A DNA stretch of 7,050 nt from a bacterium (GCA_026981635.1 JALSIF010000297.1:1-7050), one strand, 5' to 3'. Counted from the first letter of the stretch, positions 775 through 6,865 are shown. Numbers and translations: made by a program. Notes: generated by a model from the sequence alone, not told the origin.

Positions 775-952
775 TTTCCTCACTCCCCCTCCCTGCTTGC
801 GGGGAGGGGGCTGGGGGGTGGGGTCTGCCTGCGGGAAAGAAACCCCTCCCGGCGCTTCGCGCCACCCTCCCCGTTTACGGGGATGGACCAGGGGTGGGGT
901 CTCTCCCCTTCCCCGCTTGCGGGGAGGGGGCTGGGGGGTGGGGTCTGCCCCT
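775..952 (+). repeat. Repeat cluster 1 (hairpins plus G-run tails)
   Basis: The gene-free stretch 719-1069 is mostly this cluster. It contains a stem at 785-810 (arms 785-796 and 799-810, loop TT), a GGCGC-TTC-GCGCC hairpin at 851-863, a TCCCCGT/ACGGGGA hairpin at 868-883, and a second long stem at 905-930. G-run tails follow the long stems (801-823 and 921-943). Similar units recur at 2361, 4909, 5093 and 6690 in the same orientation. Reading frames across it give low-complexity Pro/Gly/Arg peptides and are not genes. Confidence 0.9.
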
Positions 953-1013
953 GCAGAAAAAAGTCCCCAGAATTTTTCCCCATCAACGCAACCTGGAGGG
1001 GGTCTCAGGCGGA

Positions 1014-1069: not shown

Positions 1070-1446
1070 ATGAAGAGCCTTAAGGTAAAAGTGCTGTTGG
1101 TACTTCTCCTAGCCTTCTCTCTACTTACGGCTGATCAACAACAGCCAGTCTCTTCTGCGACCTGCAAACAGGTTGTGGAAATCTGGAGATCTGTACCCTA
1201 CGCCTGTACAGCACCTGTACCGGAGAATATTGGTACAACTGGTTTCAGGACCGAGATGTAGAAGATCCATGCGGATGTTACCTAGGAACCACCAACTATC
1301 CCGTTGAATTCAAGTGGTATACAACATGTTACGAAGATTGTGGAGTGCCAAGTCAATCTGGAATTGTAAAGACTACAATGGATGTAGAAAATTTGTCTAT
1401 CTGTTTAACCCACATAGTATGCAATTATGGAGAATGCCCTGATTAG
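1070..1446 (+). pseudogene. Small Cys-rich secreted protein, split by a -1 frame change
   Basis: A strong ribosome binding site (GAAGGAGGTGAGGC) precedes the ATG at 1070, which opens a signal peptide (MKSLKVKVLLVLLLAFSLLTA). That frame stops at 1261 after 63 codons. In the -1 frame an open stretch from 1135 to the TAG at 1444-1446 encodes 103 residues with 11 cysteines and many aromatics, including CTGEYWYNWF and DPCGC, ending CNYGECPD. The two parts read as one roughly 125-residue exported disulfide-rich protein broken by a one-base deletion (or read by a -1 shift) somewhere in 1135-1260. The gene at 6594-6130 has a similar pattern (CGGSWYECAF, then DPC, then a three-Cys C-terminus), which supports the downstream frame. 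No slippery heptamer is visible in the overlap, so mutation or sequencing error is more likely than programmed shifting. Function is unknown. It lies 52 nt upstream of the lipoprotein gene and is probably cotranscribed with it. Confidence 0.65.
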
Positions 1447-1498
1447 CGCAAAAGAACTTTCTCTTATTGGGCAGAATCCAAAATAAGGAGGGACTTAA

Positions 1499-2305
1499 AT
1501 GGCAAAAGTGGAAGCAAGAAAAAGTGGGATCAGCTTGAAAAGGAGAGGGGCAATCTTGGCTACTTCCATAATTTTATTAGTATCGGTTCTTTTTAGCTCT
1601 TGTAATTTAAGCTCAGATGGTTCAGCAAAGTCTTCCTCCCAGAGGAATCAGGCAGGAAATGACGCCGTAGCCAAGCAAAACTACGAACTTGGCCTGAAGC
1701 TCTCCCGGCAGAACAAGACCATCTACCTCCCCCCCGGACACCCGCTGCTTGATCGGGAAAAGAACATCAACCAGCAGCTCTCCCTGGCCCGCTCCTGGAA
1801 GCCAACCCAGGCCGTCCCCTTCTCTCCCGAGCTTCCCGCCTCCTTTGCCGAGCTTTCCGAACAGGAAAAGGAGATCGTGCTAAACCTTGACCCCACCGTA
1901 GGCCGGGTGGGGACACTGCTGACCCACCACTTCACTAAGCTTGCCGCAAAGTGCAAGGAGCCAAGTTTTGCCAACCTGGCAGGCAGCCTGCGAGGAGTCT
2001 CCACCATGGTGGAAGAGATCAACGACCCCGAGGCCTTCCTCACCAACCCCCTCACCGGCAAGCCCTACCAGCTCACAAGTCCGGAAAAGATCCCTGGCAA
2101 CATCTACATCAAGCTGCTTGCCCGCGAGGAGCTTGAGGAGTTCCTTCAGGAAAATCCCAAGTTGCACATCAAGACTGATCCGACGCCCCCCCGGTCCTGG
2201 CTCTTCGTCCGCATCTGGGGCCCCGAGCGGGTCATCTATGAGATGATCCTTAGCGAGGCCACCGCCGGCCCCTGTGCCACCTACCCAACTCCGGCTGGGG
2301 AATAA
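1499..2305 (+). CDS. Putative lipoprotein, second gene of cassette 1
   Basis: This is a 268-residue exported protein I cannot assign. AAGGAGGGAC sits 7 nt or so before the ATG. A basic N-terminus (KRR, residues 14-16) precedes a hydrophobic segment (18-32) and the lipobox-like LFSSC, with Cys35 the likely lipidated residue; Phe at -3 is not ideal. A Ser/Asn/Gln-rich linker follows to about residue 55, then a GC-rich globular region. Only two other cysteines occur, Cys152 and Cys259. Residues 183-192 (NPLTGKPYQL) followed by PGNI resemble the loop that follows the last strands in pseudopilin-like proteins, but that is a weak resemblance. The first 60 or so codons are AT-richer than the rest, matching the Cys-rich gene upstream. 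Cassette 2 carries an analogous protein of the same size, again behind a Cys-rich gene, so the two gene products may work together at the cell surface. Confidence 0.75.
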   Translation: MAKVEARKSGISLKRRGAILATSIILLVSVLFSSCNLSSDGSAKSSSQRNQAGNDAVAKQNYELGLKLSRQNKTIYLPPGHPLLDREKNINQQLSLARSWKPTQAVPFSPELPASFAELSEQEKEIVLNLDPTVGRVGTLLTHHFTKLAAKCKEPSFANLAGSLRGVSTMVEEINDPEAFLTNPLTGKPYQLTSPEKIPGNIYIKLLAREELEEFLQENPKLHIKTDPTPPRSWLFVRIWGPERVIYEMILSEATAGPCATYPTPAGE

Positions 2306-2360
2306 GAGCCCCTTTACCTGGGTTGACGAGGGTCCCTCCCCCGCCCGAATACTCCCACTC

Positions 2361-2488
2361 CTCCCGGCGCTCTGCGCCACCCTCCCCTCACGAGGGGAGG
2401 GAAAAAGAATCTCCCCCTCCCCGCCTGCGGGGAGGGGGCTGGGGGGAGGGGTTTGCCTGCGAGGAGGGGCTAGGGGTGGGGTTTGCCC
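2361..2488 (+). repeat. Repeat cluster 2, adjoining the hisC promoter
   Basis: This is the cleanest copy of the unit. In order it has a GGCGC-TCT-GCGCC hairpin (2366-2378), a perfect 10-bp stem CCCTCCCCTC/GAGGGGAGGG with loop AC (2380-2401), an A-rich linker, a perfect 12-bp stem with loop CT (2413-2438), and a G-run tail (2429-2451), followed by a degenerate second tail to about 2488. It fills the gap between the lipoprotein stop and the leaderless hisC promoter. No T-run follows the stems, so they do not look like intrinsic terminators. Confidence 0.92.
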
Positions 2489-2508
2489 CGGGGTAGGGCC
2501 CTCCTTAG

Positions 2509-2520
2509 TACAATCGGGGC
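2509..2520 (+). promoter_or_regulatory. -10 element placing hisC as a leaderless transcript
   Basis: TACAAT at 2509-2514 is followed by exactly six bases before the ATG at 2521, so transcription would begin at or next to the A of the start codon. No Shine-Dalgarno sequence is present. The best -35 candidate, TTGCCC at 2483-2488, comes from the repeat tail and is 20 nt away, so it is poor. The dapB start at 6878 has the same arrangement. Confidence 0.6.
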
Positions 2521-3636
2521 ATGGACTTTGCCAAGCTCGCCAACCCCCAGATACTGCGCATCAAGCCCTACGTGCCGGGCCGGCTGATAGAAGAGGACAT
2601 CCTCAAGCTTGCCTCCAACGAGAACCTGCTCGGCCCCCCCGAGTCGGTGGTCAGGGCCCTCTGCGAGCACGCCACCATGGTCAACTACTACCCCGACAGC
2701 GACTGCCAGGAGGTGCGCCAGGCCCTGGCCGACCACTGGGGCATCACCCCCGAGGAGATCATCATGGGAAACGGGGCGGTGGAGCACATCTACAACGTCT
2801 GCACCGCCTTCATAAGCCCGGGCGAGAAGGTGATGTTCCCCTGGCCAAGCTTTGCCATCTTCCACATCGCCGCCACCATCCAGGACGCCCACCTTGAGAT
2901 GGTCCCTCTCACCCCCGACTTCCAGTTTGACTTTGACCTCCTCATCCAGCGCTACCGGGAGTTTTCGCCCAAGCTCATCTTCCTAAACAACCCCAACAAC
3001 CCGACCGGCTCCTGGTTCAGCGAGCAGGAGCTGGTCCGCCTCCTTGAGGCGGTGGACCCCGAGCATACCCTGATCTTTCTGGACGAGGCCTACGTCCAGT
3101 TCGTGGACGCAGCCGACTTTCCCGACTCCCTCAAACTCAGGCGGGAGTTTCCCAACCTGGTCATCCTTCGCACCTTCGCCAAGATCTACGGCCTTGCTGG
3201 CCTTCGCATCGGCGCCCTCATCGGCCCCCCCCAGTTCATTGACCTCATAAACCGGGTACGCGACCCCTTCAACGTAAACCGCCTCGCCCAGGTGGCCCTG
3301 CTTGCCGCCCTGAAGGACGAGGCCTACTACCAGAAGAGCCGCGAGCTGGTCATCCGCGACCGCAACTACCTGATGCAGAAGTTTGATGAGCGGGGCATCC
3401 GCTACGTCCCCACCCAGACCAACTTCCTCTTCTTTGACTCCGGGGTGGACGGCGAGGAGCTGTTTAGGCGCATGATGGAGGAGGAGAAAATCACCATGCG
3501 CCCCATGACCGGCTACGGACTGCCCAGCTGGTTCAGGGCCTCGGTCCCCTCCGACCTTGCCCAGTGCGACCGCTTCCTGGAGGCCCTGGAACGCCAGCGC
3601 ACCCGGCTCATTGAAGAGGGACTTGCGGTAGGCTAG
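2521..3636 (+). CDS. hisC: Histidinol-phosphate aminotransferase family (HisC/aromatic aminotransferase)
   Basis: This 371-residue protein is a fold-type I PLP aminotransferase of the HisC branch. HisC transfers an amino group between glutamate and imidazole-acetol phosphate in histidine synthesis, in the cytoplasm. Visible motifs are PYVPG (16-20), SNEN (32-35) followed by LGPP, NNPNNPTG (156-163), the cofactor-ring aspartate in FLDEAY (Asp188, Tyr191), and the Schiff-base lysine in TFAKIYGLAGLRIG (Lys221). Arg339 in WFRASV fits the position of the substrate-carboxylate arginine. Length is normal and the family is complete. The start is set by the leaderless promoter; there is no ribosome binding site. 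It is not in a histidine operon but six bases upstream of plsC, so an aromatic or other amino-acid aminotransferase of the same family is possible. The family assignment is firm; the exact substrate is not. Confidence 0.88.
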   Translation: MDFAKLANPQILRIKPYVPGRLIEEDILKLASNENLLGPPESVVRALCEHATMVNYYPDSDCQEVRQALADHWGITPEEIIMGNGAVEHIYNVCTAFISPGEKVMFPWPSFAIFHIAATIQDAHLEMVPLTPDFQFDFDLLIQRYREFSPKLIFLNNPNNPTGSWFSEQELVRLLEAVDPEHTLIFLDEAYVQFVDAADFPDSLKLRREFPNLVILRTFAKIYGLAGLRIGALIGPPQFIDLINRVRDPFNVNRLAQVALLAALKDEAYYQKSRELVIRDRNYLMQKFDERGIRYVPTQTNFLFFDSGVDGEELFRRMMEEEKITMRPMTGYGLPSWFRASVPSDLAQCDRFLEALERQRTRLIEEGLAVG

Positions 3637-3642
3637 CCCAAG

Positions 3643-4350
3643 GTGGGAGTACTGGGACCAGGGGGACGTCTGCTCTACCGGATAAGCCGCCGCTTCGTCT
3701 ACCGCTGGGCAAACGACTGGTTTGAGCTTAGCTACTCGGGGATAGAAAACATCCCCCCAAGCGGCCCCCTTATCGTGGCCTCCAACCACCTAAGCCACCT
3801 GGACCCCCCCATCGTGGGCCTCATGATCCCCCGCTACGTCTTCTTCATGGCCAAGACCGACCTTTTCCGCACTCCCCTGCTTAGTCTGTGGATGAAGATG
3901 ATCAAGACCATCCCGGTGAGGCGCGGCGGGGGCGGCCGCCAGGCCCTGGAGATCGCCCTGCGCTACCTTGCCCAGGGGGAGGCGGTGTGCATCTTTCCCG
4001 AGGGGACCCGCAGCCCCGACGGCCGCCTGCGCCGGGGGCGAAGCGGTGTGGTGGTGCTTGCCCTCAGAAGCGGTGCCCCCATCCTGCCGGTGGCGGTAAC
4101 CGGCACCGAAAAGGCCTTGCGCAAGGGCTCGCGCAAGATAAACCGCGGGGTCTCCATCGCGGTGCGCTACGGCAAACCCTTCACGGTAAGCCTGGACGGC
4201 AAGATAGACTGGAACGACCCCCCCCTGGAGGAGATCCGCGACCGGGCCCAGCTGGTGATGGCGCGCATCGGCGCCCTCCTCCCCCCCTCCTACCAGCCCC
4301 ACCACCCGGAGGAGGTCTACGGGAGGTACCTGGATGAGGTAAAAATCTAG
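3643..4350 (+). CDS. plsC: 1-acyl-sn-glycerol-3-phosphate acyltransferase family (PlsC)
   Basis: This is a 235-residue member of the PlsC/LPLAT family, which adds the second acyl chain to lysophosphatidic acid to make phosphatidic acid at the inner face of the membrane. The catalytic NHLSHLDPP carries the HX4D pair His49/Asp54. Further family blocks are PVRRGGGG (91-98), FPEGTRSPDGRL (118-129, phosphate-binding Glu120-Gly121) and ILPVAVTGT. Length is typical. The start is GTG 3643: the hisC stop TAG lies in the same frame just nine bases upstream, so no earlier start is possible. There is no strong ribosome binding site, which suggests translational coupling to hisC. Downstream the sequence turns abruptly AT-rich, and the next gene converges from the other strand. 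The acyl acceptor preference cannot be read from sequence. Confidence 0.9.
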   Translation: MGVLGPGGRLLYRISRRFVYRWANDWFELSYSGIENIPPSGPLIVASNHLSHLDPPIVGLMIPRYVFFMAKTDLFRTPLLSLWMKMIKTIPVRRGGGGRQALEIALRYLAQGEAVCIFPEGTRSPDGRLRRGRSGVVVLALRSGAPILPVAVTGTEKALRKGSRKINRGVSIAVRYGKPFTVSLDGKIDWNDPPLEEIRDRAQLVMARIGALLPPSYQPHHPEEVYGRYLDEVKI

Positions 4351-4391
4351 GCAGTACATCTATCATTCAATTTTTATATTATAAGATTATC

Positions 4392-4703
4392 TTAACTATA
4401 AATCACAATTATATTTACAATAATCATAATTAGGTAAAGAAATGAAACAACTAAGAACAGTAACAAGATATATACATCTCTCAAGTTACCCCTTGTAATC
4501 TTTACAAATAACAACTCTGTGATCACTGCAGATATTAAACCTGCAAGCGAAATGAAAATAAGATAGGAAGTTAATTTATCATATAAGAATAATGTTTTCT
4601 CTGTTTTTACTATCCATTCATAAAATATCCCATACAGCATCAGTGGAGTGACAATCAAAGCCGCTTTTACTAGATGCTTGTTTAAGTGCTTATCTAGGTT
4701 CAT
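4392..4703 (-). CDS. Small AT-rich three-helix membrane protein, unknown function
   Basis: The start is chosen at the ATG at 4703, giving 103 residues, because AAGGAGGAGAGGT lies directly upstream; a longer frame to 4763 would run through the promoter. The protein starts MNLDKHLNKHL and has three hydrophobic segments at about residues 13-31, 44-67 and 77-100, with charged connectors (KTEKT, KITRGNLRD). It ends at its last helix. I recognise no family. Base composition is strikingly AT-rich against neighbours on both sides, a sign of recent acquisition. It is convergent with plsC, with only about 40 nt of AT-rich sequence between the stops and no good terminator stem. It has its own promoter at 4735-4763. 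Immunity-type or small accessory membrane proteins often look like this, but nothing here proves such a role. Confidence 0.75.
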   Translation of the reverse strand: MNLDKHLNKHLVKAALIVTPLMLYGIFYEWIVKTEKTLFLYDKLTSYLIFISLAGLISAVITELLFVKITRGNLRDVYILLLFLVVSFLYLIMIIVNIIVIYS

Positions 4704-4734
4704 TACCTCTCCTCCTTGCCCTGAGGATAAGTTA

Positions 4735-4763
4735 CTATTACCACATCTGCTTCCCCTTGTCAA
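4735..4763 (-). promoter_or_regulatory. Sigma70 promoter for the small membrane protein
   Basis: On the minus strand a perfect TTGACA (4763-4758) is separated by 17 nt from TAATAG (4740-4735). The -10 is imperfect but preceded by TGG, an extended -10 arrangement. The predicted start, near 4728, gives a leader of about 25 nt containing the AGGAGG at 4715-4710. Confidence 0.6.
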
Positions 4764-4766
4764 GGA

Positions 4767-4788
4767 GTTGCGAGGAAATTCTCGCGAC
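4767..4788 (-). repeat. Inverted repeat just upstream of the -35 box
   Basis: Arms GTTGCGAG (4767-4774) and CTCGCGAC (4781-4788) pair over 8 bp with one G-T pair around a six-base centre (GAAATT). The dyad ends 3 nt from the -35 of the small membrane protein promoter, a place suited to an activator or repressor. No known operator is recognised. The rest of the gene-free stretch between here and 4908 shows nothing I can support. Confidence 0.4.
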
Positions 4789-4908
4789 TGTATTACCCAT
4801 TTCAGCCGAGCTTGCCCTCGTCCCTCTCAGTTTGATGTTCATACCACCTCTGTTCTTCTTCTGTCTTGCCTGCAAATGTTTTACCACCCTCACTGCCTGC
4901 GAGGTCTC

Positions 4909-5048
4909 ACCCCTCCCGGCTCCCTGACGGCAACCACCTCCCCTCACGAGGGGAGGGAAAAGAAGATTCCCCTCCCTGTTTGCGGGGAGGGGCCAGGGGA
5001 GGGACCCCTCCCCCTCCCTGCTTGCGGGGAGGGGGCTGGGGGGTGGGG
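4909..5048 (+). repeat. Repeat cluster 3
   Basis: The first module is the variant CCCGGCTCCCTGACGGCAAC instead of the GGCGC hairpin. Then come the CCTCCCCTC/GAGGGGAGG stem (4937-4956), an A-rich linker, a long stem at 4969-4992 with two G-T pairs, and a second long stem at 5010-5035 with the G-run tail 5026-5048. It lies upstream of the small membrane protein promoter and, with cluster 4, fills the gap to cassette 2. Confidence 0.9.
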
Positions 5049-5092
5049 TCTTGAACACCAGGGAGGGGAATCCGGCTTATCCCCCAGAAAAC

Positions 5093-5222
5093 CCCACCCG
5101 GCGCTCCGCGCCACCCTCCCCTCACGAGGGGAGGGAAAGAAAAATTCCCCTCCCCGCCTGCGGGGAGGTGCTAGGGGAGGGGTCTGCCTGCCGGGAGGGG
5201 GTCGGGGGGAGGGGTCTGCCCT
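5093..5222 (+). repeat. Repeat cluster 4
   Basis: The order is a GGCGC-TCC-GCGCC hairpin (5100-5112), a perfect 10-bp stem with loop AC (5114-5135), an A-rich linker, a long stem at 5147-5170 with one mismatch, and a G-run tail at 5193-5214. It sits in tandem with cluster 3, about 45 nt apart, and about 50 nt beyond the stop of the secreted protein gene at 5272. The bases 5223-5271 show nothing recognisable. Confidence 0.9.
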
Positions 5223-5271
5223 GCGGAGAGGGGGCATGCTTAACCTAGAACAGAAGCTGGGACTTTGACTG

Positions 5272-6087
5272 CTAGTACCGGTAGACCGGACTAAGCGGCT
5301 CCAGCCAGTTCACCACATAGTCCATGCAGGCTGGGACCCTGCTTCCTTCCGGCATATCTCTCCACCTGATCTCCAACCGGTTGCTGTGGAAGGTAAGCTG
5401 GACCACATTCTCGGGTCCCTCCCCAATGGTGAGGGGCTCTCTGCCCCAGGGGTCGGAAAGCTCCCCCTCATAGACCTCAAACCCGTTGCGGATCAGAAAG
5501 TCCCTCACTTCGGGCCAGGAGACTGGCCAGCGCGGCCCCTCAGTCATGAAATAAAGGTTGTAGGCAAACCGGATCTGGTGAGCCATGGAATAGAAACGGC
5601 CAAAAGCCTCCCACTCCCGCTCATCCATCCCGGATTCGGTGCGATACTCCCAAGGGTAACAAACAAAGACATCAGGCCTGTGGACTTTCCTGGCTCCCTG
5701 CTGAGAAACCCAGTCTTGATAGCGCCTGCTTAGGGTGGTAGCTCCTCCTTGGAATGAAAACTCGCTTCCATCGTAGTTGATCACCCTGGCAAAGAGCCAT
5801 GCCTCATCGGGAGACTTGAGCTCATATCGTTCCTCAGGAAGGGGGAGGTCGTAGAGCAACCACCCTTCCCCTTTGAGTTGCTGCCAGTTCTGGGGAAGCC
5901 GATCGTAGAAGAGCCCATAAAGCTGCAGGAGGCTCTGCTTCTCTCCTGCCACCATCCTAGTGACCAGAAAGCCCACCGGTTGAAGCACATCACCGCTCCG
6001 GGCAGAGCCCTCTTCCGACCAGCCCACTCCCCCAATCAGGCCAAATGCAACTACCCCAAGAAGCCAAAACCAGACCCACTTGCCCAT
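5272..6087 (-). CDS. Secreted protein, second gene of cassette 2
   Basis: I place the start at the ATG at 6087 (271 residues). A GTG three codons earlier is part of the AGGAGGTGA ribosome binding site, which sits 5 nt from this ATG. The protein opens with a signal peptide (MGKWVWFWLLGVVAFGLIGG) with likely cleavage around residues 24-26 and no lipobox. The rest is soluble and rich in Trp, Tyr and acidic residues. Two cysteines, Cys143 and Cys254, could form a disulfide. Two stretches look like copies of one module: RLPQNWQQLKGEGWLLYDLP in the N-terminal half and RWPVSWPEVRDFLIRNGFEV in the C-terminal half. The second leads into LSDPWGREPL, reminiscent of pseudopilin DPWG loops. I recognise no family. 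It follows the Cys-rich gene by 42 nt in one operon and parallels the lipoprotein of cassette 1. Confidence 0.8.
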   Translation of the reverse strand: MGKWVWFWLLGVVAFGLIGGVGWSEEGSARSGDVLQPVGFLVTRMVAGEKQSLLQLYGLFYDRLPQNWQQLKGEGWLLYDLPLPEERYELKSPDEAWLFARVINYDGSEFSFQGGATTLSRRYQDWVSQQGARKVHRPDVFVCYPWEYRTESGMDEREWEAFGRFYSMAHQIRFAYNLYFMTEGPRWPVSWPEVRDFLIRNGFEVYEGELSDPWGREPLTIGEGPENVVQLTFHSNRLEIRWRDMPEGSRVPACMDYVVNWLEPLSPVYRY

Positions 6088-6129
6088 CTTTCTCACCTCC
6101 TGTCAGTCTCTATCCACCAATCATTGATC

Positions 6130-6594
6130 TTACGTTTGCGAAATCTCACAATGGAAATATCTAAGAAGTCTGCAGTCAATACAATAATCTGTCCTTTCCG
6201 GAAAACTACCGAAGCACCAAGGAACTCCATTGCCGGGTACAGAATCAGAACAGTCGGCACTTCCTGCACTAACTACGATCCCATAATACCTATCGCAATG
6301 CCTGTACTCCTGCTCATCTGGCCGGCAGGGGTCGGTTGTCTTCCTGGTTTTTGCCTCCCAGCCTCGACAGAAAGCACACTCATACCAACTACCCCCGCAG
6401 ATAAATCTAAATCTCGGACGGTTTGGCTGCTGTTCAAACCACTCCTCCCACTTGACGCAGCACCTGATCTGCTGGGCAGTCGCTGTGTAATTAGGCTCAG
6501 GTCTTAGGGATATGAGCCAAACCACTAGCACCCAAAAGAGAACTCCCCCCATCCAGCCGCTTACGCTGTAGACCACCTTCAACAGTGATCTCAC
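6130..6594 (-). CDS. Small Cys-rich exported protein, first gene of cassette 2
   Basis: This 154-residue protein starts with GTG at 6594, six bases after AGGAGGTGA. A hydrophobic stretch at about residues 14-30 (GWMGGVLFWVLVVWLISL) acts as signal or membrane anchor, so the rest should be outside. The exported part has 12 cysteines in about 120 residues, including CC (44-45), CGGSWYECAFC, TTDPC and a C-terminal C-I-D-C then FHC. This suggests several disulfides and a compact extracellular fold. No known Cys-rich family is recognised. The pattern C-G/T-G then WY, then DPC, then three Cys near the end is shared with the broken gene at 1070-1446. It is first in an operon with the secreted protein gene behind a strong promoter. 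The strong promoter implies substantial expression. A toxin, adhesin or matrix component are all possible, none shown. Confidence 0.78.
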   Translation of the reverse strand: MRSLLKVVYSVSGWMGGVLFWVLVVWLISLRPEPNYTATAQQIRCCVKWEEWFEQQPNRPRFRFICGGSWYECAFCRGWEAKTRKTTDPCRPDEQEYRHCDRYYGIVVSAGSADCSDSVPGNGVPWCFGSFPERTDYCIDCRLLRYFHCEISQT

Positions 6595-6689: not shown

Positions 6690-6830
6690 CCCTCCCGGCT
6701 CCCTGACGGCAGCCACCCTCCTCTCACGAGGGGAGGGAAAAGAAGATTCCCATCCCCGTGTACGGGGAGGGGCCAGGGGTGGGGTCCCTCCCCCTCCCTG
6801 CCTGCCGGGAGGGGGTCGGGGGGAGGGGTT
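6690..6830 (+). repeat. Repeat cluster 5, upstream of dapB
   Basis: The order is the CCCGGCTCCCTGACGGCAGC variant, a 10-bp stem with one G-T pair (6716-6737), an A-rich linker, an ATCCCCGTGTACGGGGAG stem (about 6752-6769), a second stem near 6788-6815, and a G-run tail at 6807-6828. The variant head matches that of cluster 3. It lies between the cassette 2 promoter and the dapB promoter. A short degenerate tail continues to about 6858. Confidence 0.9.
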
Positions 6831-6865
6831 GCACTACGGGAAGGGCCCAGGGTGGGGCCAGTCGC

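What the first reader, a model, noticed from the sequence alone, without database searches (positions are those of the whole stretch)
1070..6594. Two copies of a Cys-rich plus secreted-protein gene pair on opposite strands
Cassette 1 (1070-2305, plus) and cassette 2 (6594-5272, minus) have the same order: a small exported Cys-rich protein (11 and 12 Cys in the exported part), a short gap (52 and 42 nt), then a 268-271 residue exported protein with two downstream cysteines 107 and 111 residues apart (Cys152/Cys259; Cys143/Cys254). The Cys-rich members share C-[TG]-G-...-WY, DPC and a three-Cys C-terminus. I know no described system with this make-up. A two-component surface or secreted system that has duplicated or been acquired twice is inferred.
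Basis: partly seen in the sequence, partly recalled or inferred. Interest (0 to 1): 0.72.

Follow-up and report, generated by a model that had tools for sequence, protein, structure and literature searches.

The report
Phylum-specific exported cysteine-rich gene pairs
Bacteria of one uncultured phylum (GTDB 4484-113) carry several copies of a two-gene unit, a fast-changing exported cysteine-rich protein followed by an exported partner; this contig holds one such unit, with its cysteine-rich gene broken, and a look-alike unit whose partner belongs to an unrelated family.

Summary
The pairs are real, but they are not two copies of one pair. Cassette 1's Cys-rich gene is not one ORF: the ATG frame stops at 1261 and the cysteine-rich part lies in another frame (to 1446), so it is frameshifted. 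Its partner (1499-2305, 'family A') occurs in all 10 held genomes of this candidate phylum (GTDB 4484-113) and in none of 230 others. In those relatives an exported Cys-rich gene often sits directly upstream: 9 of 35 partner genes, against 0 of 358 background ORFs. Cassette 2's partner ('family B') is unrelated to family A by every sequence test. It recurs once in the same genome (contig C89), behind a weakly homologous Cys-rich gene, so that pair did duplicate. The matching cysteine spacing in the two large proteins is not conserved and looks like coincidence. The Cys-rich genes diverge faster than the partners, are AT-rich, and are broken in 6 of 15 loci while the partners stay intact. No DsbB or VKOR was found in the 10 genomes, so exported proteins with 8-12 cysteines are unexpected. 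Function is unknown; I favour a variable, expendable exported protein held at the envelope by its partner, with toxin-immunity the main rival.

The parts
1070..1261 (+). 5' part of Cys-rich gene 1 (signal peptide and the first residues after it), ATG start behind a strong SD (aaggaggtgagg)
1135..1446 (+). 3' part of Cys-rich gene 1 in another frame (-1 relative to the ATG frame): the cysteine-rich region; gene is frameshifted, exact site within about 1135-1258
   Evidence: openness test; no -1 slippery heptamer
1499..2305 (+). Partner 1, family A exported (lipoprotein-like) protein, 268 aa, NPLTGKP...PGNIYIKLL...VRIWG motifs
5272..6087 (-). Partner 2, family B exported protein, 271 aa from ATG 6087 (274 aa from GTG 6096); one paralogue on contig C89
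6130..6594 (-). Cys-rich gene 2, intact, 154 aa, 12 Cys after the signal segment, GTG start behind AGGAGGTGAG
783..972 (.). GC-rich interspersed repeat block, left of cassette 1
2357..2480 (.). GC-rich interspersed repeat block, right of cassette 1
4913..5227 (.). GC-rich interspersed repeat block, left of cassette 2
6693..6857 (.). GC-rich interspersed repeat block, right of cassette 2

Best explanation
The window holds two examples of lineage-specific, two-gene envelope units of candidate phylum 4484-113. Gene 1 makes a small Sec-exported protein with 8-12 cysteines; gene 2 makes an exported, often lipidated, partner. Shown: the order, the recurrence, family A's restriction to the phylum, the faster divergence and frequent breakage of gene 1, and that partners A and B are different families. 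Inferred: the partner stays in the envelope and holds or displays its own Cys-rich protein, which is the outward-facing part in contact with other cells, phages or surfaces. That exposure would explain why it changes fast and can be lost while the partner is kept. In cassette 1 the Cys-rich gene is disrupted, so that copy probably makes only the partner; cassette 2 is intact.
For: Family A in 10/10 class genomes and 0/230 others. Exported Cys-rich ORF directly upstream of 9/35 partner genes versus 0/358 background ORFs in 400 kb. Partners are pairwise detectable (Z>5 in 49/105 pairs), Cys-rich proteins rarely (6/105). Cys-rich gene broken in 6 of 15 loci by mixed lesions: 3 frameshifts, 2 TAG, 1 TGA; one further locus lost it by an in-frame fusion; partner intact in all (Fisher p 0.017, or 0.007 with the deletion). 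The Cys-rich gene has lower G+C than its genome background in all ten loci where a background was sampled. Lipobox-like or SPase I signals in partners, read by eye. Family B pair duplicated with its Cys-rich gene.
Against: Physical interaction of the two proteins was not tested. Most Cys-rich proteins cannot be shown to be homologous to each other, so 'gene 1' may be several unrelated families in one position. Many family A genes have no Cys-rich neighbour, so the partner has work of its own. Nothing shows surface exposure directly.
Confidence: 0.38

Rival explanations
1. Toxin and immunity: the Cys-rich protein is a secreted antagonist of neighbouring cells and the envelope partner neutralises it in the producer. 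Partners without a Cys-rich gene would be orphan immunity genes.
For: The first gene is broken while the second is kept; most family A genes stand alone; two-domain family A proteins exist; AT-rich, fast-evolving first gene. Orphan immunity genes kept without their toxin are described for CDI systems (PMC9086364).
Against: No convincing similarity to any known toxin or immunity family (Pfam, NCBIfam, PDB sequences; PHROGs and PADLOC for the window proteins). Family A is conserved across the class while the Cys-rich proteins are not, which is unusual for specific toxin/immunity co-evolution.
Confidence: 0.25
2. Metal or thiol chemistry: the cysteines stay reduced and bind metals or act in redox transfer outside the cell, with the partner as dock.
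For: CxxC near both ends of many members; no DsbB or VKOR found in 10 genomes; members of this phylum have been linked to arsenic cycling in seep sediments (PMC10060404).
Against: Cysteine number and positions are not conserved. Mature cysteine counts are even in 12 of 15, which leans to disulfides (p 0.018; cut sites approximate, interrupted genes joined by hand). Repeated breakage does not suit a housekeeping role.
Confidence: 0.13
3. Recoding: the interrupted Cys-rich genes are expressed through programmed frameshifting or stop read-through, for example TGA as selenocysteine in G006:C123, where the TGA aligns with the first Cys of a CxxC.
For: Each interrupted gene has exactly one lesion and stays open afterwards; the TGA lies at a Cys position of the G003:C6 relative; tRNA-Sec exists in 7 of 10 genomes.
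Against: Lesions are of mixed kinds (shifts of both directions, TAG, TGA). G006, G000 and G009 lack a detectable tRNA-Sec: their best hits are tRNA-Ser. No -1 slippery heptamer in the window gene.
Confidence: 0.06
4. Two full duplicates of one pair.
For: Same order, export signals and similar sizes.
Against: Partners A and B unrelated in BLASTP, HMM and profile-profile tests; Cys-rich 1 and 2 not alignable.
Confidence: 0.1

Closest known systems
Contact-dependent and other toxin/immunity gene pairs, with orphan immunity genes (PMC9086364)
   Same: Two adjacent genes, variable first member lost more often than the second, many orphan second members.
   Different: No sequence match to any toxin or immunity family; the first member is a small independently exported protein, not the tip of a large delivery protein.
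Type IV pilins / pseudopilins (e.g. Thermus TT_C0855)
   Same: By eye family A has a helix with 'YY..G..P.s..EL' and an SPVTG/DPWG-like turn; TT_C0855 appears at Z 3.7.
   Different: No prepilin leader, no Pfam or PDB sequence match, no significant fold match; that Z is in the noise range.
Small secreted cysteine-rich proteins of bacteria and fungi (general kind)
   Same: Signal peptide, 8-12 Cys in about 100 residues, fast divergence.
   Different: In a lineage without detectable DsbB/VKOR, where exported cysteines are expected to be rare (PMC12453122), and paired with a phylum-specific partner.

Membership tests
Family A (4484-113 exported partner family, defined here) | SPVTG / (F)SPGN.Y / Y.R.YG..GVI motifs and full-length profile match | tested here: met
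   window 1499-2305 scores 157 bits with the 22-sequence profile, of which it is a member; its kinship was first seen with the single sequence (paralogue at E 1e-8)
Family A (4484-113 exported partner family, defined here) | window 5272-6087 (partner 2) matches the family A profile | tested here: not met
   score -0.5 bits, no better than shuffles; hhalign probability about 1%
Phylum Cys-rich + family A pair | exported Cys-rich gene directly upstream, same strand | tested here: met
   cassette 1: yes, but frameshifted; relatives
Toxin/immunity pair | match to a known toxin or immunity family | tested here: inconclusive
   no convincing hits in Pfam, NCBIfam, PHROGs, PADLOC or PDB sequences; novel families would not be seen
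Toxin/immunity pair | toxicity relieved by the partner | not testable with these tools
   needs expression
Type IV pilin / pseudopilin | pilin fold | tested here: inconclusive
   family A model pLDDT 75; middling matches only, pilin 6qvf Z 3.7
Type IV pilin / pseudopilin | prepilin (class III) leader peptide | tested here: not met
   N-termini read by eye as lipobox or SPase I signals
Selenoprotein (for G006:C123) | tRNA-Sec in the genome | tested here: not met
   best hit in G006 is tRNA-Ser; genome 88% complete

The most novel reading that the evidence does not exclude
A whole candidate phylum, without detectable DsbB or VKOR, uses hypervariable exported proteins with 8-12 cysteines, each matched to a phylum-specific envelope partner, as a previously undescribed antagonism, recognition or metal-handling system; the family B pair would be a convergent or very distant second version.
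Probability: 0.3. Interest if true: 0.65.

Novelty: new variant of a known kind. Interest (0 to 1): 0.45.

Why it matters
Obligate anaerobes are reported to tend to exclude cysteine from exported proteins (PMC12453122). A phylum that keeps making exported, cysteine-packed, fast-evolving proteins without the known disulfide-regenerating enzymes DsbB and VKOR raises a testable question about oxidative folding or metal use outside the cell, and marks a candidate interaction system in bacteria nobody has grown.

Tried and rejected
Pfam, NCBIfam and PDB sequences: no convincing match for the Cys-rich proteins or family A. Family B was tested in Pfam, PHROGs, PADLOC and PDB sequences only, again nothing convincing. 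Foldseek and VIA-align of the family A model: nothing above noise. Family B folded from a single sequence: pLDDT 44, not used. Pseudopilin identity: suggested by eye, not supported. Selenocysteine reading of the G006 TGA: no tRNA-Sec found in that genome. -1 frameshift signal in the window gene: none. HisC as a probe for close relatives in genome contigs: none found; family A alignment A5 had no usable stretch. Phages (partner 2) and plasmids (Cys-rich 2) by tblastn: none. Mis-binning of the window contig because of its repeats: hisC-plsC composition fits the bin and families A and B both recur in the bin, so not favoured, but not excluded.

Full report
What the sequence shows. The window is one whole contig (C297, 7050 bases) of a MAG of 1.75 Mb in 317 contigs, 85% complete. 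Between the cassettes lie an aminotransferase (2521-3636) and an acyltransferase (3643-4350) by Pfam. The second frame is open for 103 codons, which 19 of 5000 shuffles reach, so it is or recently was coding. No canonical -1 slippery heptamer is present in the overlap. I read this as a frameshift mutation, or possibly an assembly error.

Where it comes from. A family A alignment found loci in genome contigs whose records are 'bacterium isolate AUK090' and 'Planctomycetales bacterium 4484_113'; the latter locus matches one of genome G009, which the tool places in the same class as the window. The name points to the GTDB candidate phylum 4484-113 (the link from the MAG name to the GTDB label is my own knowledge), reported from seep sediments and deep groundwater (PMC10060404, PMC11484514).

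The partner of cassette 1. Searching with window 1499-2305 found a paralogue at E 1e-8 and three weaker ones in the same genome. Profiles built from these, then from 22 members, matched all 10 held genomes of the class, 46 places in all, and none of 230 other genomes searched with the same profile. No Pfam, NCBIfam or PDB sequence family explains it. A model of a representative (L084) has pLDDT 75 with a well-predicted core, but no PDB or viral structure match above noise. Some members have two such domains in proteins of about 560-780 residues.

The upstream gene recurs. In relatives, a small exported Cys-rich gene stands directly before a family A gene: intact at G001:C11, G002:C8, G003:C6, G004:C24, G005:C5, G005:C9 and G008:C283, and interrupted at G002:C15 (TAG), G003:C8 (TAG), G006:C53 (frameshift), G006:C123 (TGA) and G008:C269 (frameshift). 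At G002:C102 only the signal peptide is left, fused in frame to the partner. With a mechanical definition, 9 of 35 partner genes (families A and B) have such an ORF upstream against 0 of 358 non-overlapping ORFs in 400 kb of the same class (Fisher p 1e-10). That definition misses G004:C24, and it counts the first fragment of the broken G008:C269 gene.

The Cys-rich proteins are barely alignable. Leave-one-out profiles exceed all shuffles for three of fifteen (G002:C8, G004:C24, G006:C53), and one of 500 shuffles reaches G006:C123; both window proteins fail. Pairwise, 6 of 105 pairs reach Z>5 against 49 of 105 for the partners; the partner figure is slightly low because one partner, G006:C53, was read in the wrong frame in that run and corrected afterwards. 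What they share is position, a signal peptide, 8-12 cysteines in about 100 residues, and in many a CxxC near each end.

The two window pairs are not copies of each other. The large proteins are unrelated by BLASTP, by HMM against shuffles and by profile-profile comparison. The cysteine spacing that suggested kinship is absent from the other family A proteins and from the family B paralogue. Family B has exactly one relative, on contig C89 of the same genome, and none in 143 other genomes. That relative again follows an exported Cys-rich gene, which matches Cys-rich 2 over about 45 residues at a level reached by 13 of 3000 shuffles. So pair 2 has duplicated, but elsewhere in the genome.

Gene 1 is lost more than gene 2. 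It is broken in 6 of 15 loci while the partner is intact in all 15 (p 0.017; 7 of 16 with the deletion, p 0.007). One lone family A gene, G009:C98, is itself frameshifted, so partners do decay too. Identification of the broken genes was by eye from the reading frames; for G006:C53 and G006:C123 the leave-one-out scores support homology of the joined reading. The mixed lesions look like ordinary inactivation. Seven of ten genomes carry tRNA-Sec, but G006, which has the TGA, does not show one.

Oxidation. DsbB and VKOR families gave no match in any of the ten genomes, although the same searches hit several control genomes. A recent paper says that obligate anaerobes tend to exclude cysteine from exported proteins and that some use DsbA-like proteins without a regenerating partner (PMC12453122). 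DsbA and other oxidants were not searched. Mature cysteine counts are even in 12 of 15, a weak lean to disulfides.

Mechanism. The evidence fits a variable, expendable exported protein with a more conserved envelope partner. Whether the partner displays it, neutralises it or only shares its promoter is not shown. I give display/holding about 0.38, toxin-immunity 0.25 and metal or redox chemistry 0.13.

Noticed in passing
window 783-972, 2357-2480, 4913-5227, 6693-6857: Blocks of GC-rich palindromic interspersed repeats bracket both cassettes; BLAST at E<=1e-3 and diagnostic words found no copy in 419 kb sampled from the same bin. They may have helped cassette movement, or hint at a different source for this contig.
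   Followed up: partly
window 1070-2305 and 5272-6594: Both cassettes are AT-rich islands (51.6% and 54.2% G+C) against a bin mean of 62.7%.
   Followed up: partly
window 4392-4763, minus strand: A 123-residue ORF in a very AT-rich stretch, with hydrophobic segments and no Pfam, PHROGs or PADLOC match.
   Followed up: no
L064 3874-9136; L065 2486-5536: Long proteins with two family A domains near a gene that looks like clpX in G003 and G009.
   Followed up: no
L017 (G006:C123), Cys-rich gene upstream of 2298 on the minus strand: In-frame TGA at the position of the first Cys of a CxxC in the G003:C6 relative, followed by a weak hairpin; no tRNA-Sec found in that genome.
   Followed up: yes
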